In this document: positions 8,542-42,714 of the stretch, piece by piece | Layout of the letters: every line of letters begins with the position of its first letter | Position numbering within the stretch: position 1 is the first letter of the stretch | Assembly (NCBI RefSeq): GCF_003073045.1 | Contig: NC_037596.1 | Span: 9,979,950 to 10,043,949, forward strand | DNA length: 64,000 nucleotides | Direction of reading: 5' to 3' | From: Pomacea canaliculata | Lineage: Eukaryota; Mollusca; Gastropoda; Architaenioglossa; Ampullariidae | Notes under the pieces: model-generated | What the model was told of the DNA's origin: nothing | What the model saw: only the letters and a program-made list of their open reading frames with translations | Database searches by the model: none | Program-made: the position numbers and the translations under genes

Positions 8542-8837
8542 TTAATCGTTTGATTTTCTATCAATGACAGGGAAAGCATTTGCCATCAGGCGAAGTGCGC
8601 AGTATTCTGTCTCCTCGTGTGTGGGCGGTGGGCGACACCTCACACCATTGCCGACATCAAAGGCGGGGAAGGTGTAAAGAAGTCCTGCCGAGTTGAGCCA
8701 CCTGCCATCATCGACTGTATGAGAACGTGAGGCAGGACTGCGAGCATCCAACTGGACATAATCCTCATCTTGTTCTGAATGTGGGCCCATAATATTCTGG
8801 TAATCGCCTAAGTCATCGCTTTTACACTTGGAGTCTT
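8542..8837 (-). CDS. Gene A exon 11: terminal cytoplasmic exon with three tyrosine motifs
   Basis: The acceptor tctacag gives phase 1 and opens the frame EDSKCKSDDLGDYQNIMG; an acceptor 13 nt earlier would bring an early stop. It holds DYQNI (Y720), DYVQL (Y734) and TEYCAL (Y786) and ends at TAA (8542-8544). Confidence 0.8.
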
Positions 8838-11800
8838 CTGTAGAGTAAACCTGAAAATGTGTCAAATTATCGCGTTTGAATTTTTTCATAAGGTAGATGT
8901 CATCTAAAGTTTTTTTCCTCAGATTTCAGCATTTTTCTGTCAGTCTTTCAATGTAAACTAAATTTAGAATTAACAGACCAAGATTTGGAGGGCAATGAAA
9001 ACAGTGATATGTCAGAAACAGCATTAGCTGCTTGCTTAGTGCATGAATTAGCCATGTACTGACCAGGAAAGAAAGACTGGAAGTTTGAAACAGCTGCTTT
9101 GTGCCTGTTCCAACAAATTCTTTGTTTTATTATGTACTTTCTGGCACATTATGTCAATGTGTGGCCACTTCTGCTTACTGAACTCTATGCCCGTAATAGA
9201 AACTACATCAGGGCTATGTCTAAGTGTTCCGGGAAAAAACGCTTAATTTTGTCCATGAATTTATTTTTGATTACTTCCGGTAAAATTAACTTTTGGTTTC
9301 GATTATGGGGTCGTACTTTTATTGAAGAGAGACCTTAGGATTTACTAACAGACTTAGTCCTGTACCCTCAGTTTTATTCATGCACCCATATGCATACTCC
9401 CGCAAACCAACCAACCCACACAAAGCTTAACTAACCTCTTTCCTTCGACCTGCACACAGAAAATTCCGTTTTGTGTTGGTTAACTCCGTAAAGAAGACAT
9501 TAAAAATACGAATTGCTCCACTGTATGCACAGCACAAGTAGTATTACTATATAATAACAACAACAGCAGAAATATTGATAATATTACATTTAAATACATA
9601 ACACCTTTCTAAAATTCCTTAACTATTGCAGCTGGAGAATAATGCTCAACAATCCTATTCAATGGAAAGCATCATAATTAAGCTGATTAAAAAATAAACT
9701 CTACATAACTTTTAGTTTCTCATTCGACCACCTATTCAAAGAGAGAAGGAAGAAAAGAAAAAAATGTCTGAGTGACTGAATGAAAGAAATGAGAGAAACA
9801 AACAAATGAAGTGGCAAACAACTAACAGTCAACATACACTAATACAAACATACAGATCGTATTGCTTTTGTCTTTTATAGCAAGATAAGGTATAGAACTA
9901 AATTTACCATTCTCTGTTTTGGGACGTTTATCCATGCCCACCGTTTGAAAGTTATCACACTTGCCTGCAGATTTGTTTTTGGTCTTGTCAACAACAGCGT
10001 ATACTACTTGACACGTAGGTGGGAGGCTCGGTTCTGAACCTTCAATACCTGTAAACATCCTCGATCGATTGCAAAATGTATTTTTGACCGACTGCTCATT
10101 CACTCAACCGAAAGGGATAACCTTTTACCCTCTTAATTCTGTATAACATGAACCCAAGGTGACTTAACTGTGGTGTAGCCACTTACACAGCAAGAATGTA
10201 TTGATAACAGCACTTGTAAGTATTCTATTCAGCATCGACTACAGAGTTGAATTCCACTTACGACAGGTCATCGCAAACCTCTTGATCCTTGCTTTAATTC
10301 GGAATATGCTGTAGGGATACCGTTTAATTTTTTTTTTTTTTTTGAGAAGAGACCCATACTAATGGGAAATTCCTTAGTACAAATTGCAAGCACAGTTGTA
10401 AGACATTCCTAATTTCATAGTTTTCTTATTTACCTTAGCACATAATTAAAATGTAATGCGATAGGTTGATGATAACCAATTCACCTTGTTTGATTTCTTT
10501 CTCCATTTGTTTTTCTTTGTCAACGATGCTGGCGGGGCGCTGGTTTCCTTTCTTTTTTTTCTTGTCCACTACAGCATACAGGGGCGTCTGACAGGGCTCC
10601 GGTTGTGAAGCGCCGGTAGTTATGAGTCTTAAGTGGGGCTGGAATTCAATCATTATAAGGAGGAGGGCTAGGAACCAAAGACATCACAGCAGTACTGATG
10701 GACAATAACTTGTTATGGGCCTCACCAAAATGTTCTGTACAAGTGAATGCTGCTGTCACTCTTCTCACCAGCAAGAACTTTGCCCCCTTAACGCGAGTTT
10801 CTTGCGGCATTGACATGCCGGGCTGATGGCAGTCTACATTCACGACATTTAAAAACGATCATCATTGCTTTTTAGTACTCTCGGCACTTTAGCACGAACA
10901 ACCAATAAATCTCGGAAGATTGTGCGAACCAATATGAGGATGGCCGAAAAAAGCTGATAAGATATGACCGGGAGCGGTTGACGAACCCTGATGCTTAAGA
11001 AGCATCACGCTGCTAAATTTTATCTGTTATCAAGTAGAAGGCAAGAAGCCTCTCTGGAGTGGTCTATAACCCTGAGGTATTAAGCTAATAATAAGCTTAT
11101 TATATTACAATAAATTACTCCGACATCTACAATGAACAAAATATCACTCGACCAAGTTTTATTCAAGCTAGAAAGAGTTGTTAATGGCCTACCATTCTTT
11201 TTCCTCCTTTTTTTAAGTGTAACGATGACAACAATAAATATGAAGACGACTACGATGCCACTTACAACACCAACAATAGCAAATGAATTATGTTGTTCCA
11301 GTTCATCTAGGACACATAGAAGACAAAGTTAAAATAATGGACAAAGAATTTTTATGTTTATTTGGCTTTAACCTCATAAATGTTAGGAATAATAATAGTA
11401 GGCACATAATACAAGAACTAACTTTAACAGCAGACATATATTATTACAGTCAGAAACACCGTTAGCATACCGCGAGAAAGAACGAGAATAGTCCTCGTGC
11501 CAACTATAACAGCTGAACAGTAATAAACTTATTAGTGATATATTTGAAGTCACTCACTGAAGTCTATTCTGACGGTGACGTTTCCATCGCCAACCTCGTT
11601 GATGATTTGAACCTTGTACAGACCAGCTGACTGGGAAGTTAAGTTGACGAATGTCAGAATGCATGTAGATAGGTAACGATTTACTTTTCCAGCCTTACAA
11701 GTTATATTTAACATGTGGTCTTTGATGTTATCGATGCTCATTGTATTGCTGCTCTTTGATGATCTTACCAACCACATATGATACTCGTACGGCACAGGGT

Positions 11801-14800
11801 AAGCGATGATATCAAACGTTACTTCCTCATGTGTATATATTTTGTAGTCACCAATATGCGTAGATAGCTGACCTCGAGGTTTGCCTTTAAAACAAAAAGC
11901 ACACACACACACATAGAGACACAATAACCCAATAACCCACGCATAATCACAATAATGATTGTCTGTAGGGATAAATTCAAAGTGATATATGTACAGCTGT
12001 ACAGACGCATTATTCGTACTCAAGTACAGTATAATGTTTGGAGAGAAGGCTGTCCAAAGGTTATACTTACACAAAACACCGAGTTCGAGACGGAGGGAGG
12101 TGGTCACGTGATGTGAAAACTCGTTCCTGGCAGAGCACAAGTACATTGCTGTGTCTTCACAGCGAGCGATGAAAGTGTAGTTGGCAACATTCGAGCCGTT
12201 AAATATAACAGTGTTGTTATTACGATAGATGGAGATGTGTGGTGAAGGTCGGCCATCTGACTCACACAGAAAGTCCACTTGGTCTCCATCATTCACTGTC
12301 TGATTCCGTCCAGAACCGTTCAGCGAAAACCGACTGACTTTTGCAGCATCTGTAAAACAGAAGCTGTCAAATTTATTATTTTGTACAGCAGCTAGGACAA
12401 CTCCTGTTCACACTATTTGGAAACAGTCTTTGAGGAATTAAAAAAAAATTTTTTTTTTCCCTGTTTTGTCATACGGGGTAATGGATGTTAAATAAAATTT
12501 ACGAACAACACTGTAAGAGTCTTGTTAGTAGAATCATTTCAAAAGAGGACCATCAGCATCTTCCACAAGCATTACTATGATAATCAAGATGATACGCAAA
12601 AGGATTTTGATAATGACATACTATAAAGTTATTCATAAAACATTATTTAGAAAATAAATCATATTTCTTCCACGGCACTACACTTAACTGTGCACAGAGT
12701 TAGATAACACATTTCTCTCAAGTATCTCTGCAAAACAAAAATATAAATCAATATAACCCACCCCACGAAAGAGTGAATAATTTTTATGATAGAGTAAGGA
12801 AAATTAGTTAATAAATCGATGGGTGAACTTTTAGGAAGGTTGAATGCATTAAAGGAGATAGAATCAATTTGAAATCACACTGAAATTTGTTTCTATTATC
12901 GTCAGATGGTTCTATAAAAATATCACACCCAATAGTAAATGCATAGTCTAAACATACATGTATGCATTGATACAAATTATCACATAGACAATGACAATGA
13001 CAATGACAATTCTTTATTTTCACGCGTGCTAGAATAAGCAGAAGGCTTTTTAGATGAAATCTTTTTCTGAAAAGGCAAACAAAAGAGCAGCAAGAAAAAG
13101 AAGAAATAATGAAAACAGATTAGCTATCAAAGAATATACTAGCGTTCAAACATCGATAAAGAGGTGAAAGGCGATAGGATTGTTTACTTACACCCAACAT
13201 TAGCTGTGTAGATGTTCCCACGGGTCTCATTTCCTCTTCTGATGACGTCACACCTGAACCAGGTTCTCTCATGATCCGAGAGAGTCAAGCGATGAGTAAA
13301 GTTCATTTCTTGTGATCTCACGGACAGGTACTCTTGCCTTGCTGGTTGTCCTTGGTTTGTCTGGTTACCAATGACCCACCTCAGGTAGCCTGCAGGTTGT
13401 CCTAGACTATTGGTCTTACAGGTACAGGTGACATTAGTGTTTTCTAACACGTAGGGATGTGGGCTACACGACACTGTTGGCATGTGAGGTCCTTCTGCAC
13501 AAATAATAGGTAGTTTTAGAGTCTTACTTGTGCATAACATCTTGTTCTTCTATGATGTTTAGACTTCATGCTTCTTTTTTGCGAAACAATTCAAGATAGT
13601 AAGATTTCAATTTTGATAAATAAAAAAAAAGAGAAGCAAAGGCACAAACTGAGCGGAAATATGATGTACTGTCATTTGTTTCACTGGTTTTTCTTGTTCT
13701 TTATAAAAATGAAGTTTCTATCTGTACCCGACAGCGCGTGTGCGAAAGTTCAGACGTCAGTGTGTGTGGGAGAATGGGTGTACTAAACTAATGTGGAAAT
13801 GTGCACACGACTGCGTGGTCACTAGACTAGTACTTAAAAAATGCAGGTGATGATTACTGTGGTGTGTATTTGTGCAGAGAGGTTGGTAGAGAGTGGGCCA
13901 AACGGATAAAAGTGTGGGTTAGTTAGGGAAACGTTGAAATATAATATATTGAAAGAGCTCCCCATATTCCTTCCTTCAATTTAAGTAATTTTTATCTTAC
14001 CATTTATAATCCACTCGAAACCACCAGTCAATTTTGCATTGTAAGTTCGTCCACCAGGATAGATGACAACATAAAAACCATAACGTCCTGTTTCTACTGG
14101 GAGAGTTGTGTTGAACAGACAGGAGCCTGACACTTTCACTTCACCCTGGGTGCTCTCGCTGGTTGGAAACGTCACCATCGTGATCATTTCTACAGTTTCA
14201 TTTCTTGACTGCAGTAACAAAAACATAGGGAGGGGGGCAAAATTCAATATCATAATCATCATCGTCGTCGTCGTAGTCGCCATCATCATCAAACGATATA
14301 CTTAGACAATGTGGCTTCACACCTTACCAGATAAGAACTAAAAGTAGCAAAGCAAACGTCAACATAGAGAGTAATTAATTTTTTTTTATCGTTATTCAAG
14401 ATTTAGTTATTCTCGTAAAGAAAAGCCAGATAAGAAGCCATTCAAAACTGATTTCTTTACAATAAAAGATTTGCTACGAAACTGCATCGTTTGTTTCAAT
14501 GGAAAAAAAATTATGTATTCGTAAAACAAAGTTAACTCGTCAACAAAAAAATCACTTGGATTTATTTGTTTTGTGGGTAACTAACTGTAGTTAGCATTTT
14601 ATCTATAATTTTTAGATTAATGATTGTCAGAGGTTTGGGAAAATTATAGAAATAAACTTGGATCACTAATATTTGTAAATGTTTAAGCTGTCTCTGCTGG
14701 CAATTCGCATACAAACTATACACGTGCATAGAGCCACCAGAGAATAGCATTGCTTTTCAGACACGCAGTCCCTAACTGAAAAAAATAGTGAATCTCACAC

Positions 14801-16152
14801 AGATTACCCACATCGTGGTTTCTCCTATACAACTGACACAAGTAACGTCCACGGGAGGAGTAGACACTGCCGATGTCACATGATACATTCACGATCCATG
14901 ACGTATTAATTGCGGTGCATGAAACGCCCTCTGGAGGATCTAAAATAGTTGAAATAAGTTACGGTACGGACGACTGGACAGAAAGACAAAACTGAATTTT
15001 TATATATAAAAGAGACAAATTTTTTAAAATGTAGTTTCTTTCTCTTACTGATACAAGGTACATAGAGGTCTAGTCGAACAAAATTTCAGACTTTTTCCAA
15101 ACATTTTCAGACGAGAAACTTTCCACTTGAAAGCACATACAAAGGCGGTCTGGCGGAACTGCAAGTATGGACGACCTTATGCAAAAGGCTTTTTAACCAA
15201 CAGAGCAGAGTATGGACAGCGTGCAGTGTTTGAGCTACTGAACGAAGTGGGAATGGAGTCAGCAGGGTGAGGAGGGAAGACAGGAAATCAGGCGCACAAT
15301 GATGGAGACATTTATAATATAATCATATGTAATGGAACAGAAATAATATTAACCTACAATAGTTTTATAATATAATAATTTTAAAACCAGAAGACAAAGT
15401 GCTTACACACAAAGTTGAGTTCACAATGACCCGAGTTCACAGGTGATATTCCAACTGTAAGAACACACTGAAGACTAGCGTTTAACAAAAGACCGATGTC
15501 TGAACGATTTGAAGCTTTGATGGTCATAGAACTTGAATGGCGAGAATTCACTACAGTGGCAATAAACAGTTTCCTGAAATCATCCGTCTTAATGCAAGTA
15601 TCAGCGCATGTTGATAACAAATCAGAACTATCGGCGCCCTGGCGTTGCAGTCTCCAGTCCACTTCTCCCTGAGCCGTGCAGTTGAAGACAGTGTCTTGGC
15701 CAGCCAGCACTTCTCTCACGCCGTCTTTACCACAGGGGAATATAAGTACACCTGAAACTTCATGTTTTACAGAAGCCACAAGCCACCGTTAATTCATGAC
15801 AGAAAATAGTAAAGTAGTTCTTTTTTCTTTCTTTTTCTTATTTTCTGATATTTTTCTTCTTTTTTTTTTCGCTGTCTCACACACGCAGAAATAACCATCC
15901 ATGCAGTCATACATTTCAAAATATTGTCTTTTCCCATGTACTACAGCGGTTGAATATCATATTACTCATGATGATTAAAGCCGGAGTGACAAACATACGT
16001 TTTATCTCTTCCTACGCCATCTACACAGATACATGTAGCACTTTGTAAATTTTTTTACCTCTGTCTACTGAAGAGCGAAGAGAAAGCAAGAGAGCTGCTA
16101 CCCACAAGCACCATTGCTTTTTCCCATGCTGATGTAAGGCGCAGATGTACAT
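8542..16152 (-). CDS. Gene A: five-Ig transmembrane receptor with tyrosine-motif tail (11 exons)
   Basis: Joined minus-strand exons: 16152-16059, 15751-15407, 14939-14812, 14208-14001, 13494-13192, 12349-12071, 11884-11558, 11306-11193, 10667-10485, 10048-9908, 8837-8542. All junctions follow GT-AG and the frame is open for 805 codons. Order: signal peptide (about 1-31), Ig-like modules D1 (32-146), D2 (147-258, split over two exons by a phase-0 intron), D3 (259-359), D4 (360-452) and D5 (453-561), TM (about 570-592), then a basic stop-transfer KKRRKK and a 200-residue tail. Exon borders between modules are phase 1, as in shuffled Ig domains. Many NxT/S sites suggest a glycosylated surface protein. 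The tail has Y630, Y677 (VVYAVV, ITIM-like), Y720 (DYQNI, YxN), Y734 (DYVQL) and Y786 (TEYCAL), suggesting phosphotyrosine signalling through SH2 proteins. Gene B is its paralogue. Ligand and vertebrate equivalent are unknown; the exon model is inferred from sequence alone. Confidence 0.85.
9908..10048 (-). CDS. Gene A exon 10: cytoplasmic exon with ITIM-like VVYAVV
   Basis: Encodes GIEGSEPSLPPTCQ followed by VVYAVVDKTKN (Y677), which fits the ITIM pattern [IVLS]-x-Y-x-x-[ILV]. Phases 1-1, donor gtaaat. The motif resembles PLYAVVDK in exon 9, so exons 9 and 10 may be an internal duplication. No counterpart is found at the gene B locus. Confidence 0.78.
10485..10667 (-). CDS. Gene A exon 9: cytoplasmic exon with PLYAVVDK
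   Basis: Encodes A600 to Q660, with a YxxV motif at Y630 (PLYAVVDKKKK) and a long run of charged residues. The acceptor ttcctag and donor gtgaat give phases 1-1. The homologous sequence in gene B carries an early stop. Confidence 0.78.
11193..11306 (-). CDS. Gene A exon 8: transmembrane exon
   Basis: Encodes a stalk (NELEQHNSF), about 22 hydrophobic residues rich in V and I, then LKKRRKKN as stop-transfer. Phases 1-1, donor gtaggc. It aligns with gene B exon 8. Confidence 0.85.
11558..11884 (-). CDS. Gene A exon 7: membrane-proximal Ig-like module D5
   Basis: Starts KPRGQLSTH and contains FDIIAYPVPYEYHMW, a C-x7-9-C pair, and SAGLYKVQIINEVGDGN, a typical late Ig beta-hairpin. The donor gtgagt overlaps an in-frame stop just downstream, so the frame must be left here (phase 1). 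Confidence 0.86.
12071..12349 (-). CDS. Gene A exon 6: Ig module D4 (I-set-like)
   Basis: Contains VDFLCESDGRPSPHISIYRN and the hallmark CEDTAMYLCSARNEF (D-x-A-x-Y-x-C). This is the most orthodox Ig domain of the protein. It lacks the usual Trp after the first Cys, as does gene B. Phases 1-1, donor gtaagt. Confidence 0.88.
13192..13494 (-). CDS. Gene A exon 5: Ig module D3
   Basis: 303 nt, the same as gene B exon 5. The core is CTCKTNSLGQPAGYLRW, then RTWFRCDV near the end, the C-W-C pattern of an Ig domain. Phases 1-1, donor gtaagt. Confidence 0.88.
14001..14208 (-). CDS. Gene A exon 4: second half of module D2
   Basis: Enters in phase 0 after ctgcag and leaves in phase 1 before gtaaga. 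It contains VKVSGSCLFNTTLP and YPGGRTYNA, both conserved in gene B exon 4 (VKVSGFCQFNTTLP, SPGGRTYYA). Confidence 0.85.
14812..14939 (-). CDS. Gene A exon 3: first half of module D2
   Basis: 128 nt, the same length as in gene B. It starts PPEGVSCTA and contains YSSRGRYLCQLYR. The acceptor is tattttag; the donor is best placed at GAT|gtgggt, giving phase 0, because only phase 0 opens the frame of exon 4. Confidence 0.75.
15407..15751 (-). CDS. Gene A exon 2: N-terminal Ig-like module D1
   Basis: Phase 1 to phase 1, 345 nt, exactly the length of gene B exon 2. Conserved features are REVLAGQDTVFNCTAQG, a WR pair about nine residues later, paired TC-x-x-TC cysteines, the string RHSSSMTI and a C-terminal Cys. 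It reads as a V-type Ig fold with extra disulfides. Confidence 0.85.
16059..16152 (-). CDS. Gene A exon 1: signal peptide
   Basis: Starts at MYICALHQHGKKQWCLW and continues into VAALLLSLRSS, a basic stretch followed by a hydrophobic core. It ends in phase 1 (AGA-G) before a gtaaaa donor. The W-x-W-x-A-x-x-LL pattern matches exon 1 of gene B, which supports the start choice. Confidence 0.7.
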
Positions 16153-16914
16153 TCCTCTGACTGGTTTCAAGAAAGGTTTCGCAGAAAATGATCGTGCTAT
16201 CTTTCAGCCTCTTTTCTCTATTGTAGATTATTTCATAACCCGGAATGTAAAGTGGACTTTAATACATCCTGTTATTACAAGAACTCTTACTTTAACACAT
16301 AAAATATATATGATCCTGGAATACCAAGGCAGAGAAGGTTCCTCCTTTTGCCTAGTGATGGATGTCTTAGTAAAGTTTAACGATGGAGTCCTCAAGTTGT
16401 TCATACATCAGCGGCTGGCTGAGTCTCGGTAAATGAAAGCTAATGAACGATGCCTCGGCTTAGCCTAAATGCTGTTGAACGTGGAAGGAAATGCTTCCGC
16501 AGTCAAGTGAGGGGACAGACAGCGAATGTTGTTAAGGTGGGAGGCAGACGAAGACCACGAACATGTGATGGAGGCGTGGCTATCATGCAAATATGTTACT
16601 CAAAACAATGGAAAGGCCATCTTCATATTTTTTACATTTTTATTGTCTCTGTGCAAACAGTTAACAATTCCTTCAAAATCTTTTTTGATGAATCTGTTGT
16701 CTTGATGAATAGTCAACATAAATTTGATGACAATCCAGTATGGTCTTCAGAATGCCCAGGTCAGCAGTCAAGCAAAAAAGGTCATTGAACCTACACAAAA
16801 TGCGTGCAATTGCAGCATATCCAAATGAAAAGGCAGAATCAAACTGTAGAAAACATGCAGTGGACGTGTCCATTGTCTACACAACAAATGTGCCTTGTTA
16901 ATAGTGCCTCAGAA
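16153..16914. other. Spacer between gene A and a Tc1 remnant
   Basis: No gene is supported. An ORF starting MPRLSL at 16450 superficially resembles a Tc1 transposase N-terminus, but a better N-terminus for the nearby Tc1 copy lies at about 16920. No clear TATA box was found for gene A. Confidence 0.5.
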
Positions 16915-19196: not shown

Positions 19197-19202
19197 TTTA
19201 TT
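19197..19202 (-). terminator. Poly(A) signal of gene D
   Basis: AATAAA on the minus strand about 170 nt past the proposed stop codon of gene D. Confidence 0.4.
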
Positions 19203-19557: not shown

Positions 19558-22500
19558 CTTGCTGCCGAAATTAATTTTGTCAATAAAGTATGTTTGAACG
19601 ATAAAGGTAAAGGTCATCCCAGGACCTTTTCAGGTCATTAGGAAGTAAGGTGTTAGACACCTCACTTTTCTAGGGGCAGTGCAAATCTCCACGGCTAGCC
19701 TTTAGGTTTGGACGCAAATGCTCTAACCACTCGATCCCCCTAAAAATTCTGTTTACATTCTTGTTATTACTTTGCAACTGATATTTGTAACTAACGAGCG
19801 GTATATTTGTTAGATTGAAACAAACTCTAGCTCTCAAACTATTTTTAGCAGGGATTGGTGACAAAAACACACGTTAGATTAAATACATATAGGGTAGTGA
19901 ATTTTACCTTAAGGGTATGGCTAGAAATGCTCTGCTTTATCCAAAAGTTTGACATCAAGGAAACCACAGTGAGCAATACCAACGTTCCACTAATCACATA
20001 TGCTCCTGATGTCCCTGTATCTGCTGAAATTAGCAATAGAGTTACAACAATATTAGGACACACAAAACCGTTTTTGCTCTTTGAGAAGACATCTTCTATG
20101 ATTTTCCCATAGATGAAAGAAGAATGATAAATCTGGTCAAGGTGAAACAAGCATTGTAGCTCCGAATAACTAATAACTTCTGTCCAATACAAACATCATC
20201 TGTTTTGTTTATAAGATTTCACCTAAGATATTACAGGTGGCTTGGGAAAAAAGTACTATTCAAAGATAATGTTGAAAATGATGTTATTAAGATGGTATAA
20301 GTAAGGGAATGGGACAGTGAGTGGGGGACATATTTTAATAGAGATAGATACACAGTAGAGAAGGCAGCCCACGGAACCATATTGCTTTTCTCTTCTTGTC
20401 TAGAAACATATCAGGCGACTTTCGCTTACTTAATCTACTCCTTTGAGCACTGAAAAAAATCTCAAGCAAAGGAACATCAACCAGGCAATGCGGTGTACTG
20501 GTGTTAGTATGTGTTCGCGTGCACATGCAATTCATTTAATGAAAATGTATAAGAGAAATATTAAGGAACACTGACAAGAAAAAAAAGTTGGGGGTAATTT
20601 ACACAATAACATCCCCAACAACCACTACCATTGGCTTATACTTTGGCTTGCTTTCTCAAACATTTCCCTTAAGTTCACCTAATCTATCTGGCAACAATAA
20701 TTTTGACTATTTGTGTCATCTAAATATGTAATGGAAGGCATAATGAATGGCTATCTTTCAGAGTTAGAACGAGTCATTCAACTTTATCTCAAGGGAACAC
20801 TTACCGAAGCTTATATTTTTGCAGACTTTTATCTTCAAAGGACTTTTTGTTATTGCACAATATTTGCATTCTAGCAGTGCTCCATTATCTTGGCTTATAT
20901 TGGCCCAGTAAGCAAATATATATGTAAAGATATCTTGGGTGGAATCATCACACCAGCAGCTGTTAGGAAGTGAGCTATTCTGTTTTTTACAATTAGAAGG
21001 TTCTGGTAAAGGTGCTCGGCATGGTGTTGATGTGATTTTACCAACTGTGCGATCTATTCTCACATATTCTGGTGATGATAAGCATCCTGCATTATCAACT
21101 GCTGTTTTGTTGATCTTGCATATGAGTTTGTTCTGTCCTTCCTTGAATTGTGGGCATGTCAACTCCACATCAGAAAGGTCCACTGTAACAGTGCATGATA
21201 AATATATTAACAATTATGAGGAGTCATTTTGTATTCCTGTCTACTTAATTCATCTATTGGAATTATTTTTCTTGACAAAGTCTGAGAATATTAGAAGCTG
21301 TAAATAAAGTTCAAAAATCGAAAAATTTTCAATACGAATTTAACTGACACAAACAGAAAACCAATCAAAGTATCTCTAAATCAATACTTTGAGAAACGGC
21401 TTCAGATAAATGTGTCTAATGCACTCACACACAAAAATTTGTACATACATCCAAGACTTATAGTTAATTCGAATCCTATAGTGCCCTCAACAATCCCATA
21501 ATAATTCATGTGGTTAGATCTTCATTCTCACAGTGAAGGAACTACCATCACTATTATTTTAGGTGTGAGAAAAAAGTGAAAAAAGAAGTAATTATATAAT
21601 TACCTCCAAAGTTAACTTATTTGTGAATACAGTTTTTTAAAAATAACAACATTACTAATGTTCTATACTCAGACACTGAATAAAATAAAGTTATATGAGC
21701 CACTAAAAACTGTCCATACTTTCAGCCTCATAAACCTTCAAGACTTTCACCTGCTTTTTTGTTGGGTTCAAAATACCAACTTTAGCTCTTCTCTTCAGGC
21801 AGCATTTTTCTTTCTTTATCCAAAAAGAGTTGTACTCCTTCAGTAACATAGAAAGGTAGACTAATGCTAAACTGGAAAAATGAGCTCGGAGGTAGTTCTC
21901 TCCCCTACTACAATGTGATATGTAACAAAGCACAGAAGAGTTTTCCACTGCAATACTTTACCAGTCCATGTTAAAAATGTCTTATACAAAATTATTCCCA
22001 CTAAAAGTATCAATTTTCATGTCAGGTAAAATTTGTTTTCCAGGAACTGAAGTTTGCTGGCTTCAAATCCAAGAATGTTAAATCACTAATATTAGATTGT
22101 ATTGTGTATTTATTGTGTGGATTTGTGTGTTTATTGTTACTCATTAAGAATATATATAAGTAGTTATTGATCAGATGTACATGGTTTTACAGGTATGGCA
22201 TAACAAAGTCTAGTGCTCATAGTGAATATTATTATGTTTATTTTACATCTTGAAAAGAAAAAGCATTTCTATCTTTAAATTCTAATCCTAACCCTGTAAA
22301 ATCTTGCTTAAAATTACTTAATAAATACTTAATAATTACTACTTATCTCATAAGTATATGCAAATATCATCTAAAACTTATTGAAAACAGACTTTTGATA
22401 CAAGGATTACACTAATACAGCCATATGCAACAAGTAAATGGTTCTTCATGCTCTTGTTTCACAAGTGCTTACAAGAAAACAAAATGCATAATATTCTGCT

Positions 22501-27525: not shown

Positions 27526-27529
27526 ATAT

Positions 27530-29810: not shown

Positions 29811-29818
29811 CTATAGAG

Positions 29819-30263: not shown

Positions 30264-30278
30264 CTATAGAGAGAGTAA

Positions 30279-32108: not shown

Positions 32109-32144
<36 letters not shown>

Positions 32145-32889: not shown

Positions 32890-35889
32890 ACCATAGTAGA
32901 AATGTATGGTTTAATCATCGACGGTAGAAGCAAAATCATAAACACCAACAACAACAACAAAATCGAGTGGAATTTCTGTAGCTTTCAACGTGAAGTACAT
33001 ATGTCTGCAGTTGTTTTCGCTTACCTTTCTTCCAGGTAGGTACATGTCACCTGACAGTGTCACCCTTGCTTCACGTTGAAAGGCACAGCGGCACTACTTT
33101 AGCTTCCTTTGTGCTGGGCATGTGCCCAGTCGGTAAGTTCGATGAACCAATCAAAGACGATGATGATGAAATTCATATTGTTCGATTTGCTGCTAACGGT
33201 AGTAGTCTGCGTACCTGCAACGGGGCTTTATCGCTGTTTCCATCATGCATCTTGCTACTTATTTTCCTAGCTCGGTTCACTGCCTTTAAAATGTCGGGCA
33301 TGCGCTGTGTACTTCTTATCTGCCCCAAATACTTTCCGGTGACAATAATAGATATTTATATTGCTTACATAGTGGGTCTATATAAAGTTACTGCACACTG
33401 AGCATTGGTTCAACGAATATGTAAAATAACCACACTAGCTTCTAGTATATCTCGCACAGATGCACTAAAATCTTCAGACCTGGGCAAAGGCAGGCCCGCG
33501 GGCCGGATCCGGCCCACCTCCTGTCTCTGACCGGCCCGCCCGCTCGCCGCCAGTATATATACTATATACATACAGTATTGGGTAAAACTGAGTTAACTAT
33601 ATTAGTCCGGCCCTCTAAAAACATTCCAACTTCTCATGCGGCCCCTTGGGAAAATTAATTGCCCACCCCTGGCTTAAAGAGTTTTAAAACGACTAGTGCG
33701 CTATGAAAATGCAAAGTATTTAATACTTTCAAAAACATTTAATCAGTCTCTTCTGAAATAAATCAAGAAAAGAAACAAATAATTTTCTATGAACTTGCAA
33801 GAATTTTATTTGTCAAGTATTTGATTATTTGTCGTATCCAAAGACTGAGAAATGTTTAGGTAACTGCTACTAGCATATTGCCAAAAAGTCGTCATAGATT
33901 ACTTCCCTTTAAAACCGACATTTTCTTTTATTATTTTATCTTCCTTATGTTCCTGTCTGGATTTTCCTTCTTTCTGTAGCTGCTTATCTTTTTTATTTAT
34001 TTTTTTCTTCTTTCTTTCAACCCTATTTTATACACATAATACAATAGTGTTATATGAACAAAGAGAAGCATTATCCTGAGAGCTTACAAAGCACTACACT
34101 AAGAAAAAAAAAAAAGGACGACACGCACAAAAGACCCTTCTGTTTTATTTATCAGCTTTTCTGGTTTTTAAGAAGGAAGGATAAGATGTAAACTAAATCA
34201 ATATCTTTTCTTAATAGACACATTGTACACTTGTGAAAGTTTAAACAATCTTCCTGCTTGTCAAAATGGTTCTTTTGACTGAGTGACCATCAAAGGCTGT
34301 GAAATAGCTGGCTAGACGAAACTTTCGTCTAGATGTCACTAATATCACATGTACACGTATTAATTTGTTTCCCTACACAGAGCCACTGGCGATCTGTGGA
34401 GGTTGTGTGAATGGACTCTTTTATTTGCTCTTGAAGGCAGCACATACTATGTTTTGGCTTGTGTCATTGAAAGACCTCACGGCGAGTGAAATCGATGTAA
34501 CCATGGCTAGAAGTAAACTCGGAGCATAAACATGTAAATAACGTGGTTCAGCCGATTCACCCGACTGTTTAGGTATTAACAGAACTGGTGGCAGTTCATC
34601 AATAACGACCAGTCTTCATGTGTGTAGTATGGGGCATTCAAGTTTGTCATTGTGCAGTGGTACAAGTGCTTTTTGTTTATGGTTAGTTTGATTAGTTCGT
34701 TCACTATTTGGGGATCGTTCTTTACCTTATTTGTGTAATAAAAAAAAATTCGTTAGCCGCCTCGACCAAGGTTGAATAAAATAATAATGTGCTTATATCA
34801 TCTGTTCAATCAAATTTCATTTTTAAGTGCAATTTAAAAGTAGAGACGAAGAGTTATGAGAAGCATGCAGGGTTTTCATGTAAGCAATGTGAGCACAAAT
34901 GGATAAATATAGACGTGACGTCACAGCAATGTTAATTTTGGAATTTTCGAAGTACCTGAATATTGTAAGTGAAATTCGATGGAGTTTTTATTTTCGGAAA
35001 AAACTGCCTCGTTCTGAAAAAAGACAGCAAAGTATGGTTGTCACGTTGATGTCGCCACAACACTGCTTGCCACCCCAGCGATCAAGCACCCGTTGAAGCA
35101 GGCAAAATCTCCACTGAAACCGTGTATGTGTGTCTACCAGACAGAGCGAAGTATCTTATCTCTGTGATTAAATGGTATTTAGAGCTTCTCTCTGTTTGAC
35201 TGTTAACGAGGTCTTCAGTTTAACAAATAAGACTTGCCTAAACAGGAAAATAATTAGATTCCAATCCTATTTCACGATGGAACAGATAAATACCAGACAC
35301 CATGAGCACAACTCATCATCTTTAAGTGATCTTAAGGAAGAGCCTGACTGAAGTGAAGATTCATCCAAAGTGTGACTTTAGCACCGTTTTAAATTCGTTG
35401 TACATGTTCATATGTTCACTATTTTCGAGCCTGACTTGACAAATGAAAAGCCGATTAAAGGCGGGTTAAACCCTTTTAAAGAGGTTTTATGATGAACTGG
35501 ATCGAAAGCTTTAACATTCAGTGCCTGTTCTGTAGCAGTCAAGTATTCTAAAATGTCACAGCTCACACTTCCACACTGACTGACATGCTCCAAAATAATG
35601 TCTGTCATGTGGGTCCGACTGAAAATTTGCTAAAATGCATAAGAGCAATTATGATGAATGACTAAATAAGAAACTTTTTTTTTCAAAACTTGATCTGCAC
35701 ATAAATCTCATATACTAGTGATTTCCATGAATAAATCATTTCACTGAAGAAGTACCTCATGAGCAATTTTGTTACTGTTTAATGACACTCAGCAAATCTC
35801 TTGTGCACTGTACTCGTATTAGTTAATGGCGCTATGACACGCACGAACACACACACACACACACAAATGCATGTTCACAAATGTTTTTC
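32890..35889. other. Duplicated non-coding flank 3' of gene B
   Basis: No gene supported. Blocks at about 32890-33250, 33840-33900 and 34270-34620 are alignable by eye with 50195-50520, 50990-51070 and 51110-51380, so this is part of the repeated unit. From about 35195 it matches the flank of gene A (7890 onwards). Confidence 0.6.
33475..33671. mobile_element. Short hAT-like element
   Basis: Starts CAGACCTGGGCAAAGGC and ends (reverse-complemented) CAGGGGTGGGCAATTAA, with GGCCCGCGGGCCGGATCCGG just inside the left end. This is the usual pattern of short hAT derivatives. No clear 8-bp target duplication was found. Confidence 0.6.
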
Positions 35890-36030
35890 CCCATCAGGCA
35901 AGTCGTGCAGTATTGTCTTCACGTGCATCGGCGGTGGGCGATATCACTGTCACTCAAAGATGGGAGCTGAACCATCTGCCCTCATCAAGAGTATGGAAAG
36001 GTCAGACTGGACTGCTTACATCCACTTTTA
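35890..36030 (-). pseudogene. Relic of the last tail exon at the gene B locus
   Basis: Aligns with gene A exon 11 (about 8580-8750): shared blocks are CCATCAGGC, GCAGTATT, GGCGGTGGGCGA, a deletion of roughly 50 bp, and then a block with CTGCC-TCATC and GGACTGC. The reading frame is destroyed. It shows that gene B once had the long tail that gene A keeps. Confidence 0.75.
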
Positions 36031-36789
36031 GCATCTTCATGTGGTGCTGAACGCAGTATTCGGACACTCGCCCAAATGATGGCTATTCTGTTATAAAAAA
36101 AAATAAATAAATAAAAAAAAAATAAAAATTACCGTGTGCGAATTTTTCCTCACATTAACTTTCTGTATCTGTCAAAGGGATATTTTTTTTATTCGACCCA
36201 GATGCTAGGATATACTCAGAGATTTATTTATGTATTATCCATTTTCACACGCACTCATGCGTGAACTTACTAAACTGTTCTCTTTCCTTTGACCTGCACG
36301 CAGAGAAATCAGTTTAAAGCTGCTCAACAAAGTACTAAAGAATGATACACTCGATTGTTTGTGCATCACCACACATGATGCTACATAGTCACAAAACTAA
36401 CAGGGAGATAGTTAACGCTATATAAATCTTTCAAAAATACATAAACTACTCTGAGGGTGTGCACTCCACACATGGAATGTCCACCAATGCTATGCAATGG
36501 CAAGTATCAGAAGTAAAAAAATGCAACAAAGCGTTGTTTTTTGTAGAATTCTCGTTACAAATCATTCACTTTCGTATTCATTAAAGTAAAGAAGGAAACG
36601 ACGCTCAGACAACATGTCTTAAGATATACTTATCTTATATCCTTTGTCTTTGCCAGCACGATAACACACAAAACTAAATTTACTCTTACCTGCATGAGCA
36701 CGTTAGTCATCGTTATGGAGGGACGAGGGTTTCCTTTCTTTTTTTGTCTTGTCCACTACAGCACACAGGGGCGTCTGACAGGACTCCGG
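36031..36789. other. Former tail-exon region of gene B
   Basis: Contains possible poly(A) signals (AATAAA minus at 36188-36193 and 36223-36228). Around 36640-36715 the sequence passes from intron matching gene A near 9870-9905 directly to sequence near exon 9, so the counterpart of gene A exon 10 has been lost. After the stop of gene B, the old exon 9 frame reads PESCQTPLCAVVDK, with Cys in place of the motif Tyr. Confidence 0.6.
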
Positions 36790-36857
36790 CTATGAAGCTT
36801 CGGAAGCTATCGCTGCTTTGAAGATGTGAATCCTCAGTATTATTGTAAGGAGTAGGT
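36790..36857 (-). CDS. Gene B exon 9: short terminal exon
   Basis: The acceptor cttcccag gives DLLLTIILRIHIFKAAIASE and then A, S and TAG. It aligns with gene A exon 9 (ALLLIMIEFQPHLR...GAS). The stop replaces a Gln codon and removes the tail. Confidence 0.75.
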
Positions 36858-39800
36858 CTGGGAAGCTAGTATGTCACAGAGGTTCTGACGGACAAGAACT
36901 TCCCTTGGGCATCATAGCAAATGTTGCTCTGTATACGTGAATGTTGCTTCCATTCTTCTATCACCAGCAAGAAGTTTGAACCCCCAACACGACTGTATGG
37001 AGTCTTTACACGCCTGATTGACTGAAGTCTATGTTCCGGACATTTAAAGCGATCACCATCACTTTTTATTATTACTCTCTTCTCGGTTTAGTGCAGACTA
37101 CCAATAAAGCTTGGCAGATCGTGCGAAATAATAGGGCCATAACAAAAATGTCTTATAAAATCTTATCGGATATAGTTGACGAACATAATGTTAAGTAGAC
37201 ATCACCCAGGAAAGCTGTATTAGAATGTTGTAAAGTGGGATAAGAGAGTTCGGTTTGGGATGGTCTATAAAATCGAACTATGAGGACAATAAAAAGCTAT
37301 GGTAATACATAAAGAATAGCATGACATTTACATTTATCCGAGTAAATCATTCGATACCACTTTCTTTTAATTAGAAGAGGTTATCTATTACTTACCTTTG
37401 CTTCGCTTCCTTTTCTTAAGTAAGACAACGATAGCAGCAATCGTGAAGATAAAAACGACGACACACACACTAGTAAATGCAGGGTAATATGATTCCAGGT
37501 CTTTCGGGACATCTAGAAAAAAAGATAAAATATAAACTAATAACTTATTTTATTTACTTGGCATTAATGTACACAATTATATTACTATGCAGAAAAAATA
37601 GTAGAATGTGACGTGTGTGTTTGTGTGGCTTTTGTTCAAATCCGCACCGTTCGCACGATTCCATTTAATTTGGCAGACGTATTCCTCTAAGTGAAGGTCT
37701 CTGGAAGATATATGTTGCTCCAGAACATGTTTAACATTTATATTTATTTTCTGCGTTCTGAGAAGTTACTGCTAGTCCCAGATAAAACAGTACTGTGCAA
37801 AAGAAATTTAACAGGCATCTCTTACACAGAAAAAAATGGCATCAGAGTTTGATTTCGGGTCCTATGAAAGCTAAAGAGATAGAGCTGGCATCAGATACAG
37901 GAAAAAGAAGAAAGGGAACGAGAGACGAAGAAGCACACAGATAGGTAAACAAAACCAAAGAGACTGAGAGAGTTTTTTTAGCCACTTGACTATTCACTTC
38001 TCTACCGCGTTAAGACTTCTAGAAAACTTCACATCCCCTCTGTTCTGAGACTTCTGACGAGCGCGCACTTATGAACAAACCCGAGAAAGAAGGAGAATTC
38101 TGACAGCTAAAATATCTGAGCAATAAATAAATATACCAGTGATCTCATCACATTTACTCACTGAAGTCTATTGTGACAGTGAAGTTCTCGTCACCAGCCT
38201 CGTTAATGACCTGTACCTTGTAGGACCCGGTTGTCAAGGAATTGATGTTGACGACTCTCAGAGAGCATGTGGACAGGTAACGGCGAAATACAGACTGACA
38301 GGTGATATTTACCATGGTGTCTTTACCTTCATTGTGGGCATCTTCACTGTTGTTTATTGGTGATTTGACAAACCACACGTGGTACTCGTGTGGTACAGGG
38401 TAAGCGATTATGTCAAAGTTCATTTCCGTTTGGTGGTTCATCATGTCAAACCCAAGTCGTGTAGACGAGTGACTTCGAGGCTTGCCTGTTAAAGACACAT
38501 ATAACAAAGAAAACAAATAAAGCACAAAACACAACACATACAAACAAATAAATACATGAAAGCAAACACGAAGCCGTGTGTGTGTGTGTTTGTAAGGGTT
38601 TTGAATGTGAGACGTATATCGCTGGAAAGTTTCGAATAAAAATCAGAAGAAATGACAGCACAGGTCACGTGGTGACCTACAAAAGAATCTTCCACTTACA
38701 CCGGACGTTGAGGTCAAGACTGACCGAGGAGGTCACGCCTGACTGACGTGAAAACTCGTTCCACGCGGAGCACGTGTAGGTGGCCGTGTCCTCACAGCGA
38801 GCGATGAAGGTGTAGTTGACAGGAGACAAATCTCTAATGATGACGGTGTTGTTGTCGTTGTTATAGATGGAGATGTGTGGTGTGGGCCGACCGTCAGATT
38901 TACACAAAATGTTTACTTGTTGTCCCTCATTTACTGTTTGATTTTGTTTGTAGCCGTTGAGCAAAAACTCAGCTACTCTGGGAGCGTCTGTACAAAGTAT
39001 CAGTTAAATTTATTTCTTTGCTTACGGCTGGAACTAACATGAACTAATTAAAATTTTATAACATAGATGATCTTTTTGGTCTTAATCGTTAGCTAAGATG
39101 TGATCCATTAATTCAGATATAGCATAGGATTTACTGCATTGAAGAAATTAAGAGTATTGTGTACCGTAGAAGATACCAACATGTTGTTTTTGAATTTATA
39201 TGATGATAGATAATGATCAAGAAGATCACTGATGCTTTTCTACTCGGCCTAGAGTAACAATTAATAGTAAAACAATAAGTGCAAGGATTATTATTTTTCT
39301 TTCACATTGTTTATTCATATGTATGCAATCCCTGTACTTCCGGGTGTATTGTTGTCACTGCGCCGTAGAAGAACATTTTAAAAATTTATAAAGCAGCTGC
39401 TAACCACGGACGATTAAACAGCTGAGGTATGAATATGTGCCCATGGGTGGGGATTTCATGTACGTAAATTTAGATAAATCTATGAGAAAATTTGCAGACA
39501 GACTAGAAGAAGTTCAAAGTGTAGTCAGAGACGTGTATAATTTAGAATAAATTGTTTACATACATCCTATATTGACAATGTAGTTTTCTCCATGTATCTT
39601 CTCCAGTCCCCAGACCACGTCACATCTGAACCAGGTTCTGCCATGGTCTGCTTGAGTGAAGAAATGCGTATAATGTAGTTCGTGTGATGTGAAATTTTGT
39701 TGGCCTTCAGAGGCTGCTGTCTCCAGGTCTGTCTGGTCACCTATGATCCATATCAAGTAGCCTGCAGGTTGGCCCACAGAAGAGGTTTTACAGGTACAGG

Positions 39801-42714
39801 TGGCGCTTGTAGTCTCTAACACGTATTGTTGTGGACCACACGACACACTGGGCAAAGAAGGGCGTTCTGCACAGGAAGACTTAGAATCTTAATAGGTATA
39901 TATGTTCGTAGTTTTAAAAAGAAGAGGATGTAGAATGAACCTATTACTCCAAATTTTAGTAAACACACACAGAGAAAGAGAGAGAGAAACACAGAGTGAT
40001 AGAAATACAGGACATTTCTCTCATGAACATGGTGCGAGAAAAAACGGTAGAGAACTAGAAGGACAGAGACAGATAAGATGAGAAAAAGTTGGTGAGAAGC
40101 GATCACCGTAGCTCGGAGAAAGCCAGTATTCTTTTCAAACCACAGCTGTATTTTACCAGTTGTAATCCAGTTGTATTTATCTGTAAAGTTTGCATAGTAC
40201 GTCCGTCCACCTGGTGAAACAGAGACATGAAAGGCATACTGTCCTTCTTCCCTTGGGAGTGTGGTGTTGAACTGACAAAAACCTGAAACCTTCACTTCTT
40301 TCTCTCCTATGTACTCGCTGGTTGGTGAGGTCAGCATTGTGACTGTTTCCAAGCTTTTGATTTGTGACTGTAAAAAAGCAACCATGAAAGCATGAAGAGA
40401 AAACTATGAAAATTCAATTTGCACGAGAACATGGAAGAAAACAAGCAAAAGCTTATTTTACAAATGCAAAACAATTTAAATGGATATTAAAACATTAGAT
40501 ATGCACTGACAGTGAATTAAAAATTAAACAATTGATTTTCATAGAATTGAGCTATCACTTTTAAAAGGAGTTTACAAACTTTTTTAACGAATCGGACACA
40601 GCTATGTAAGATTATTAATCACGTTAGTTTGATTCCCTTTATTAATCTTTTACTCTGAAATTGTTTAGTTTTTATTTGGACACTATTTAAAATGCAGAGT
40701 GCAAGAAATGAAAACAAAGGAACGAAAATGTAAGTCGTTTAAATAATGAATATAATATTATTATTTATATGAATTGTAACATGAAAGAGTAGGAAATATG
40801 TTTAAGGCAAACATCAAACAAAGTTGATTCAGCAAAGGAACTGTTGCTTGGTACTTTAAATTATCGAGATCATTCAACACAGCCATGAATTTGCTGTTGC
40901 ACGTTTAGAGTAAAAACTATCGCACTCTTATCATTTCACATGAGCTATGTATATAAGATTTAATTTAGAGATATGTTTGCGTGTATTATAAATCGAGCAC
41001 CAAAGACAACTGCTTGCATATAACTACATGTATTTCATTTTTTTCGAAGAGAATCAATGTGACACTAAACACTGACTGCCTGGTTTAGCCGGTAAAGCTG
41101 ACACGTGTAAAGTCCACGTGAAGAGTAGACACGTCCGACGTGGCAGGACACAGTCACGGTCCAGGACGTAGTAACGGCCGTGCATGACACGTCCTCGGGT
41201 GGATCTGTAAATGACTGATTATTGTACAGGACAAAACGACAATAAACTGATACAGGTGCAGGCACCGCATTCCATATATATATATAATAGGCTATGATAA
41301 TCTGTTTAGCACAGAGCTTTAATATTGTTTGTGTTTTAGCGAGACTTTGTTTTTGTGCGGATGTATACTTCCACGCACAGGAGAGATCATAAATGGAGAG
41401 AAATGGATATGTTAGAAATGGAAGAAAGTGGTGATGAATGCTTCACTTTTTTTACACTTTTAGGATGGCACAATGCCTTTCTTTGTAGGAATTTTTTTTA
41501 TCATTGTTATCCTTGATTTTTTTTTTTTTTGCTGGCGTTGCGGTAATGATGGTAGTAGAGATGTTACAGACATTTGCTGACTATAAAGTTGACAAGGTGC
41601 ATGCGTCAGACCTATCCTCTCTAGATTTTCTTATTCTAACCAGAAGAAATGCCTTTTAACAGCAGAAGCTGACACGCATTTCAGGGTGGGACCTTACGCA
41701 AGTTTGTAGCACCTTTAACATCAAATGAATTTACATTTACCTTCATTTTCCTTATTTTCTAACATTTTTCATATAAAAGTGTCTATAATATCACAAAACT
41801 CATAGGTCTACAGTACATATAGAAGAGAGATGAAAAGGCTGATGTTACCCTCGAGAAGAGCAACCGTTGAAAAGGGTGAGCGTGAGAATCGAGAATCACG
41901 AAGTAGAAGAATGATTATGGTCTAACACTTAAAGTTATAAATAATATCTTTCGTGAAAATACTTATACATAGAACAAAGGATATGAGATGAAAGGAAGCA
42001 CTTAAAGATAATAACGGCTTAAGTTTGAAAGACTTAAGCGTGAATAAATAAATATAAAGAAAATCGTCGGTTGTGCTTACACACATAGTGGAGTCCACAG
42101 CGAGCTGATGCCCCTTGCCCTGCTCCAGCCATACGATAACACAGAAGACTGCCGTTTGTCAAATGGACAATGTTCCGATGTTTTACAGCTCTAATGGTCA
42201 TAGAACTTGAATGGCGAGCTTTTACTATACTGGCTTTAAACAGATTGTTGAAATCATTTAGCTCTTCGCAAGTACTTTCGCATGTCGCTAACGAAACGAA
42301 ACGACTGGAATAGTTGTACCCAAATCTCCACTCGACTTGTCCCTCAGCCGTGCAAGTGAAGACAGTGACTTGGTCAGCTAGGACTTCTCTCACACCGTTG
42401 TCATCACAGGGAGAGATGTTTACACCTGAAAATAACAGCTTTACAGCAACCTCAAGGTTCAAATTTATTTTCTACACAGACATTATTTTGAAAAATCTCT
42501 TTCATTCTTGTTTTCTTCCTCTTTCATATATAAGCGAAATTGATATTCCCTTTCATGGTTCTCAAACATCTTACCTTGATGTTAGCATTACAGCTTAACA
42601 TGTTACAGTGTTCCTCATAACCTTACCTGTGACAACCAAAAATAACAAGACAGGTGCTGTCCATACAGTCCACATCCGTGGTTTCACGACCTCACGCAAG
42701 TCACAGAAGAACAT
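36790..42714 (-). CDS. Gene B: five-Ig transmembrane receptor with truncated tail (9 exons)
   Basis: Joined minus-strand exons: 42714-42627, 42425-42081, 41204-41077, 40367-40157, 39866-39564, 38987-38700, 38485-38162, 37512-37396, 36857-36790, an open frame of 623 codons. It has a signal peptide (1-29), the same five Ig-like modules as gene A (exons 2, 3 and 5 identical in length; 4, 6, 7 and 8 differ by whole codons), and a TM segment (about 574-594) followed by KKRKRSK. The last exon adds 22 residues and a TAG, at a codon that is CAA (Gln) in gene A, before the first tyrosine motif. B therefore has a short tail without tyrosines, and the tail has a second hydrophobic run (DLLLTIILRIHIF). 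It may be a decoy, a partner-dependent receptor, or on the way to decay; the intact ectodomain frame argues against a plain pseudogene. Function not known. Confidence 0.84.
37396..37512 (-). CDS. Gene B exon 8: transmembrane exon
   Basis: Stalk NVPKDLESYYPAF, hydrophobic TSVCVVVFIFTIAAIVVLL, basic KKRKRSK. Phases 1-1, donor gtaagt. Confidence 0.87.
38162..38485 (-). CDS. Gene B exon 7: membrane-proximal module D5
   Basis: FDIIAYPVPHEYHVWFVKS and TTGSYKVQVINEAGDEN match gene A exon 7. Donor gtgagt in phase 1, with an in-frame stop just beyond it. Confidence 0.87.
38700..38987 (-). CDS. Gene B exon 6: Ig module D4
   Basis: VNILCKSDGRPTPHISIYN and CEDTATYTCSAWNEFSRQ. Three codons longer than in gene A. 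Phases 1-1, donor gtaagt. Confidence 0.88.
39564..39866 (-). CDS. Gene B exon 5: Ig module D3
   Basis: CTCKTSSVGQPAGYLIW and RTWFRCDVVW give the C-W-C Ig pattern. Phases 1-1, donor gtatgt. Confidence 0.88.
40157..40367 (-). CDS. Gene B exon 4: second half of module D2
   Basis: SQIKSLETVTMLTSPTSEY, VKVSGFCQFNTTLP, SPGGRTYYA. Acceptor ttttacag in phase 0, donor gtaaaa in phase 1. Confidence 0.85.
41077..41204 (-). CDS. Gene B exon 3: first half of module D2
   Basis: PPEDVSCTAVTTSW and YSSRGLYTCQLYRLNQA. The donor is a weak gtcagt giving phase 0, required by exon 4; an in-frame stop follows nine nt later. Confidence 0.75.
42081..42425 (-). CDS. Gene B exon 2: Ig-like module D1
   Basis: GVNISPCDDNGVREVLADQ, FTCTAEGQVEWRFG, paired cysteines in CESTC and the conserved RHSSSMTI. 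Phases 1-1, donor gtaagc, acceptor ttttcag. Confidence 0.88.
42627..42714 (-). CDS. Gene B exon 1: signal peptide
   Basis: MFFCDLREVVKPRMWTVW followed by TAPVLLFLVVT and a phase-1 donor gtaagg. The second Met (MWTVW) would also give a good signal peptide. Confidence 0.75.

What the first reader, a model, noticed from the sequence alone, without database searches (positions are those of the whole stretch)
8542..42714. Paired IgSF receptors: one with a tyrosine-motif tail, one that lost it
Genes A and B share an ectodomain exon by exon, but A has an ITIM-type VVYAVV, a YxN and three further YxxL/I/V motifs, while B stops 22 codons after its TM exon. Seen directly: both frames and the stop. Known: vertebrate inhibitory/activating receptor families (for example SIRP, KIR, Siglec) repeatedly evolve pairs that keep the ectodomain and change the tail. 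Inference: an independent invertebrate example, possibly immune or self-recognition. B's tail has a second hydrophobic run rather than a known adaptor-pairing signal.
Basis: partly seen in the sequence, partly recalled or inferred. Interest (0 to 1): 0.8.

Follow-up and report, generated by a model that had tools for sequence, protein, structure and literature searches.

The report
Snail Ig receptor without signalling tail
In this snail-like genome a large cluster of cell-surface immunoglobulin receptors contains genes with a tyrosine signalling tail and a small branch of sister genes whose tail decayed while the outer part stayed readable, which resembles the paired immune receptors of vertebrates but is not yet shown to work like them.

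Summary
Genes A and B share seven ectodomain exons plus a TM exon, with AG/GT sites and equal phases; each is longer than stated (an extra first exon found, D1). B has no usable tyrosine tail, but it is no clean truncation: homologous tail exons lie downstream as wreckage. A and B are two members of a tandem family (26 D4-type exon hits, all on C7, a lower bound), and A is not B's nearest partner. B's close relatives are B' and B'', with the same tail deletion, and E, with a B-like ectodomain (84-96% nt per exon) and an intact A-type tail. In a tree of 18 members B, B', B'' form one clade (97/93) beside tailed E: one loss, then duplication. After the loss, B/B' show 0 indels in 1,959 ectodomain bases (8.9 expected) and omega 0.50 (LRT 9.6): moderate evidence that B is still used, weakened by possible gene conversion and a near-neutral B'. 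Nothing supports 'activating': no TM charge, no motif. Tailed members carry ITIM- and ITAM-spaced motifs. Most likely B is a signal-dead (decoy or co-binding) receptor.

The parts
20805..21182 (-). Gene A exon D1 (Cys-rich N-terminal ectodomain exon)
15407..15751 (-). Gene A exon D2
14812..14939 (-). Gene A exon D3a
   Evidence: phase 1-0
14001..14208 (-). Gene A exon D3b
   Evidence: phase 0-1
13192..13494 (-). Gene A exon D4 (C2-set Ig match below cut-off)
12071..12349 (-). Gene A exon D5 (I-set/Ig_3 domain)
   Evidence: Ig_3 46.5 bits for the protein, cut-off 30
11558..11884 (-). Gene A exon D6 (Ig-like by a medium-confidence fold prediction)
   Evidence: (pLDDT 62.5)
11193..11306 (-). Gene A TM exon, no charged residue in the hydrophobic core
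10485..10667 (-).
9908..10048 (-). Gene A tail exon T2 with VVYAVV (ITIM consensus)
   Evidence: identical in A'
9436..9449 (-). Gene A 14-nt micro-exon T3, joins phase 1 to phase 0
   Evidence: identical in A'
8542..8850 (-). Gene A last exon T4 with YQNI-x10-YVQL (ITAM spacing) and YCAL, stop codon included
46054..46413 (-).
42081..42425 (-). Gene B exon D2
41077..41204 (-). Gene B exon D3a
40157..40367 (-). Gene B exon D3b
39564..39866 (-). Gene B exon D4 (C2-set Ig match over cut-off)
38700..38987 (-). Gene B exon D5 (I-set/Ig_3)
38162..38485 (-). Gene B exon D6
37396..37512 (-). Gene B TM exon, no charged residue in the hydrophobic core, donor GTAAGT
36690..36857 (-). Relic of tail exon T1 in B: the acceptor open in A' and E is deleted, in-frame TAG at 36790-36792, Tyr of YAVVDK now Cys (TGT at 36763-36765); 118 of the 141 bases of T2, with its YAVVDK codons, are deleted just after it
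36280..36293 (-). Relic of micro-exon T3 in B: acceptor kept, donor lost (AACAGT)
35875..36080 (-). Relic of last exon T4 in B (limits approximate): acceptor gone, 8- and 2-base gaps break the YQNI and YVQL frame

Best explanation
B belongs to a tailless branch (B, B', B'') of a tandemly duplicated IgSF receptor family whose ancestral form had a tyrosine tail. In the ancestor of the branch the tail was destroyed (most of T2 deleted, T1 and T4 acceptors lost, T3 donor lost); the branch was then duplicated. Shown: homology, relic exons, shared lesions, tree position, open ectodomains. Inferred: B makes a membrane protein with about the same binding surface as its tailed sister E and cannot recruit SH2 proteins. 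It would therefore act as a decoy or co-binding partner: it competes for the shared ligand, or sits in mixed complexes with tailed receptors, and so dampens or tunes their tyrosine signal. On this reading the tailed genes (E, A, A') are the signalling half; the sign of their signal is not known.
For: Homologous exon/phase structure with intact splice sites in B. Lesions shared by B, B' and B'': T2 deletion with the same break points, T1 acceptor deletion, T3 donor, T4 acceptor and frame. Tree of 18 members: B+B'+B'' 97/93, with tailed E 100/100. E/B ectodomain exons 84-96% nt while the six introns compared are 58-77% (the D1-D2 intron was not compared). After tail loss: B/B' 0 indels in 1,959 ectodomain bases against 39 in 8,619 non-coding bases, 8.9 expected; omega 0.50, LRT 9.61 for omega=1; B/B'' omega 0.52, LRT 16.7; B private changes 16 N: 15 S against 74% N expected, p=0.007. 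No YxxI/L/V in the four B read-outs tried.
Against: No transcript, protein or ligand data. The B private-change test loses significance (13 N: 8 S, p=0.21) if states shared with A are left out, and 10 of 31 private states equal A's base, so gene conversion may keep exons open without selection on B. Exon by exon, only D3a of the seven B/B' tests rejects omega=1 (LRT 4.96), and D5 is at 1.0. B' evolves close to neutrality (30 N: 12 S, p=0.72) and has a 2-base frame shift in its TM exon; B'' is only weakly constrained (70 N: 35 S, p=0.09). E plus the B-branch stem is also near neutral (60 N: 23 S, p=0.71). A/A' and B/B' form an inverted duplication; false duplication of haplotypes cannot be excluded, although B'' (78-95% nt to B) is clearly separate.
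Confidence: 0.5

Rival explanations
1. B is an early pseudogene: tail first, ectodomain next. It is open only because it is young and because gene conversion from tailed sisters overwrites its exons.
For: B' already has a TM frame shift and near-neutral private changes; exon mosaicism: in B/B' the D3b-D4, D4-D5 and D5-D6 introns are 7-16% diverged against 1-4% in the other non-coding parts (the misaligned 138 bases upstream of D1 set aside), and exons are more alike than introns among B, B'', E; B's private-change test fails without A-shared states.
Against: All eight B exons found (D1-TM) and their splice sites are intact; 0 indels against 8.9 expected; omega 0.50 with LRT 9.6; three tailless copies exist.
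Confidence: 0.28
2. B is the activating half of an inhibitory/activating pair and signals through an adaptor, as short-tailed KIR or SIRP-beta do.
For: Ectodomain sharing with a tailed sister, short tail, clustered genes.
Against: No charged residue in the TM core of B or of the 13 other family TM segments examined by eye; the short tail differs in length between B, B', B''.
Confidence: 0.07
3. B uses a tail that was missed: an alternative downstream exon, or trans-splicing or read-through to an intact tail.
For: RNA evidence was not available; only consensus splice sites were considered.
Against: In the window no Y-x-x-V-[DNE]-K frame on the minus strand between B's TM and A's own tail; a motif scan of 4.3 kb after B's TM gave two candidates, neither like the family's tail; the homologues of T1, T3 and T4 found there are broken.
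Confidence: 0.1

Closest known systems
Vertebrate paired receptors (KIR/LILR, Siglec, SIRP, CD300A/C, CEACAM, Xenopus FcR-like XFL)
   Same: Clustered IgSF genes; very similar ectodomains with different tails; [quoted passage not shown] PMC12447643 and PMC3533184 seen only in listings; KIR, LILR, Siglec, SIRP recalled)
   Different: Activating partners there have a charged TM residue with an adaptor, or an ITAM (recalled; XFL with FcR gamma in the abstract of PMC2413239); B has neither. Not a vertebrate genome, by my inference
Hydractinia Alr family and Botryllus fester co-receptors (FcoR)
   Same: Invertebrate multigene Ig-type receptors in a cluster with ITIM, hemITAM/ITAM or core YxxI/L/V motifs; some FcoR loci switch motif by splicing (PMC12065747, passages; Alr also in PMC11999971, passages)
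   Different: FcoR: V-type Ig, sushi and two C2 Ig domains; Alr: V-set and I-set; both tied to allorecognition. Here D1-D6 with Ig matches in D4-D5 only, unknown role, and a tail lost by exon decay
Oyster IgIT / CgIgIT2
   Same: Molluscan IgSF receptor with five Ig domains, TM and a tyrosine-motif tail. The review passage says ITAM, while the titles it cites say inhibitory (PMC11999971, passages and reference list)
   Different: No tailless sister genes mentioned in the passages seen; sequence homology not tested
Biomphalaria polymorphic transmembrane clusters (PTC)
   Same: Clustered transmembrane genes in a snail (PMC7494358, title, start of abstract and one passage)
   Different: A term search of the text found no 'tyrosine', 'cytoplasmic' or 'extracellular domain', and 'immunoglobulin' only in another sense; homology not tested

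Membership tests
Immunoglobulin superfamily | Ig domain recognised by profile | tested here: met
   D5: Ig_3 46.5 bits in A, I-set 35.5 and Ig_3 31.8 in B, over cut-off; D4: C2-set over cut-off in B (22.8), below it in A (19.4). D6: Foldseek hits to Ig domains at E about 1e-4, but TM-scores of the top 50 lie near 0.3-0.5 and pLDDT is 62.5. D1, D2, D3 and D6 have no Pfam match at E<=1; the D1 model is unusable (pLDDT 36)
ITIM-bearing inhibitory receptors | [S/I/L/V]xYxx[I/L/V] in the cytoplasmic tail | tested here: met
   VVYAVV in A T2, T2 identical in A'; VLYAVV in E. Weak alone: 17% of shuffled tails have one
ITIM-bearing inhibitory receptors | Phosphorylation-dependent SHP recruitment and inhibition | not testable with these tools
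   needs biochemistry
ITAM receptors | Yxx[I/L]-x6-12-Yxx[I/L] | tested here: met
   YQNI-x10-YVQL in A (0.6% of shuffles), also in A', E and g9909; second Tyr absent in g9838, g9882, g10211. Signalling not tested
Paired activating/inhibitory receptors | Highly similar ectodomain, different cytoplasmic part, in one cluster | tested here: met
   B/B'/B'' against E: ectodomain exons 79-96% nt; tail intact only in E
Paired activating/inhibitory receptors | Activating partner has a charged TM residue or its own activating motif | tested here: not met
   B TM core uncharged, no motif; hence not filed as an activating partner
Paired activating/inhibitory receptors | Shared ligand, opposite outputs | not testable with these tools
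   no binding or expression data
Hydractinia Alr / Botryllus FcoR / oyster IgIT | Homologous ectodomain | not tested
   no invertebrate proteome was searched

The most novel reading that the evidence does not exclude
A protostome has evolved, independently of vertebrates, a paired system in which tailless receptors are kept as ligand-tracking decoys: one ancestral tail loss, repeated duplication of the tailless form, and continuing exon-bounded gene conversion that keeps the ectodomain exons of tailless (B, B'') and tailed (E) genes alike while their introns drift apart.
Probability: 0.25. Interest if true: 0.75.

Novelty: new variant of a known kind. Interest (0 to 1): 0.55.

Why it matters
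ITIM/ITAM-type receptors are reported from cnidarians, tunicates and oyster, but a tail loss with the dead tail exons still readable, in what I take for a protostome gene cluster, would show that the ectodomain-keeping, tail-changing route to paired receptors is general. The case is directly testable, because tailed E and tailless B have similar ectodomains and can be compared in the same animal.

Tried and rejected
Rejected: B as a clean truncation (relics found); A as B's nearest partner (E is closer); the 22-residue run as a functional tail (not conserved); adaptor pairing by a TM charge. Led nowhere: signal-peptide exon search (none); D1 fold (pLDDT 36); tails of g9754, g9762, g9852, g9963, g9972, g10132, g10220 could not be settled from the stretches held, so I do not claim further tail losses; of 16 genes scanned for a TM exon, none was found in three: g9851 (called g9852 elsewhere), g10337 and B' (frame shift). 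B' was left out of the TM dN/dS for its frame shift. Nine open-library searches listed no paper on this cluster or on paired receptors of gastropods; most subscription papers are not held, and lists were capped. PMC6994640 was asked for and is not held.
Full report
Setting. The window is C7:9979950-10043949 of a 440-Mb, 24-contig genome. Genes A and B are on the minus strand.

Observation. I rebuilt A and B exon by exon. Both have D1, D2, D3a, D3b, D4, D5, D6 and TM, with AG acceptors, GT donors and the same phases (1, with D3a/D3b joined at phase 0). D5 is an Ig domain by Pfam in both, D4 in B; D1-D3 and D6 have no Pfam match. A PDB sequence search with A's D4-D6 gave Ig proteins such as VEGFR2 and NCAM2 (best E 2.8e-6). 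A D6 model (pLDDT 62.5) is nearly all beta with weak Ig matches. A's tail is T2 (VVYAVV), a 14-nt micro-exon T3 and T4 (YQNI, YVQL, YCAL, stop). YQNI-x10-YVQL fits the ITAM spacing; 0.6% of 20,000 shuffled tails have such a pair, against 17% for at least one ITIM. A's T1 (PLYAVV) is doubtful: the acceptor open in A' and E leads in A to a frame shift from 17 missing bases.

B's tail. After TM, B has recognisable T1, T3 and T4 relics. T1 lost its acceptor, has an in-frame TAG and Cys in place of the motif Tyr; 118 of 141 bases of T2, with the motif codons, are gone; T3 lost its donor; T4 lost its acceptor and frame. Four read-outs of B (retained intron, two upstream acceptors, the T3 acceptor) give 2 to 22 residues after the TM exon with no YxxI/L/V.

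Family. A protein search of the own genome with A's ectodomain and TM gave 71 matches, all on C7; 26 of them cover D4, 20 at 9.75-10.34 Mb and 6 at 6.6-6.9 Mb; 64 of 417 candidates were scored, so these are lower bounds, and two D4 hits 1.2 kb apart may be one gene. The tail query gave 27 matches up to E 10, of which 10 are strong T4 exons (E under 1e-9). Close relatives: A' (97-100% nt to A in D1-TM, tail intact), B' (93-98% nt to B in D1-D6), B'' (78-95%), and E, with a B-like ectodomain (84-95%) and an A-type tail (T2 87%, T4 96% to A). A(-), B(-), B'(+), A'(+) lie as an inverted duplication. B, B' and B'' share the T2 deletion with the same break points and the T1 acceptor, T3 donor and T4 lesions. 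The TAG and the Tyr-to-Cys change are shared by B and B' only; B'' has instead lost 22 bases that held the YAVVD codons of T1. B' has a 2-base shift in TM. In a tree of D4-D6 from 18 members, the three form a clade (97/93) that joins E (100/100), and one change explains the tail label among the 12 members with a state given. Six members in that tree had unknown tails, and 9 of its 15 inner branches are weak.

Selection after the loss. B and B' both descend from a tailless ancestor, so their differences arose without the tail. Ectodomain: 99 substitutions and 0 indels in 1,959 bases; non-coding: 39 indels in 8,619 bases, 8.9 expected in the exons (138 badly aligned upstream bases with 4 indels are included). 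Pairwise ML omega is 0.50 (dN 0.043, dS 0.086, LRT 9.61) for B/B'; 0.52 (LRT 16.7) for B/B''; 0.63 (LRT 8.5) for B'/B''; 0.55 (LRT 12.5) for B/E; 0.71 (LRT 4.5) for B''/E; 0.49 (LRT 39) for A/B; 0.93 (LRT 0.04) for A/A', whose tail exons T2+T4 give 0.32 (LRT 2.4). Exon by exon, of the seven B/B' tests only D3a passes 3.84; D6 of B'/B'' is at 4.6 (LRT 3.4). Private changes: B 16 N: 15 S (p=0.007), B' 30:12 (p=0.72), B'' 70:35 (p=0.09), E plus stem 60:23 (p=0.71); the B against B' contrast itself is p=0.09. Leaving out states shared with A, B is 13:8 (p=0.21) and B' 21:9 (p=0.68). So constraint on B is likely, not proved.

Exon mosaicism. Among B, B'' and E the ectodomain exons are 79-96% alike while the introns compared are 58-77%, except D5-D6 and D6-TM of B/B'' at 86-90% (D1-D2 introns not compared). 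In B/B' the three introns from D3b to D6 differ by 7-16% against 1-4% elsewhere. This fits recombination or gene conversion confined largely to exons, plus purifying selection; I did not separate the two. It matters because conversion from tailed genes could keep B's exons open.

Mechanism. Most likely (0.5) B is a membrane receptor with E's kind of binding surface and no signalling part: a decoy or co-binder. An early pseudogene is the chief rival (0.28). An activating partner is unlikely (0.07): by eye none of 14 TM segments has a charge in the core (13, B'').

Known systems. Molluscan tyrosine-motif IgSF receptors (oyster IgIT, CgIgIT2) are described in a review of which I saw passages (PMC11999971); ITIM and hemITAM or ITAM motifs occur in Botryllus and Hydractinia allorecognition genes (PMC12065747, passages). 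Paired receptors with continual diversification are described in vertebrates (PMC2413239, abstract). What I did not find in nine library searches is a gastropod cluster in which a tail loss can be read from its relics and placed before two duplications.

Noticed in passing
306-2923 and 30279-32889: A 2.6-kb direct repeat, 96.5% identical, flanks gene A on both sides; unequal exchange between the copies could delete or duplicate A.
   Followed up: partly
61289-61750 (+): An open Cys-containing stretch of 153 aa near the centre of the A/B - B'/A' inverted duplication, D1-like to the eye; no Pfam match and no convincing family exon in the stretch around it (a TM-like hit at E 0.09 and a 27-base relic-like hit only).
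   Followed up: partly
3832-4791 (+): FLYWCH plus MULE transposase reading frame.
   Followed up: no
16447-17371 (+): Frames that look to the eye like a degenerate Tc1/mariner transposase between D1 and D2 of gene A; no Pfam support for the one frame tested, 16982-17368.
   Followed up: partly
C7:9836942-9837052 (-), L027/L047: Another tailed member (g9838) also has Cys in place of the T1 tyrosine (PLCAVVDK) while its T2 keeps VYAVVDK: T1's motif may be dispensable.
   Followed up: no
C7:10067255-10067373 (L036): The B' frame shift lies in a (GT)n run inside the TM exon, a spot prone to allelic or assembly length changes.
   Followed up: no
A (window) versus A' (C7:10080082-10087882), D1-D3b: A/A' ectodomain omega is 0.93 overall, with point values above 1 in D1, D2 and D3b (none significant) and 0.32 in T2+T4: the membrane-distal part may be diversifying.
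   Followed up: partly
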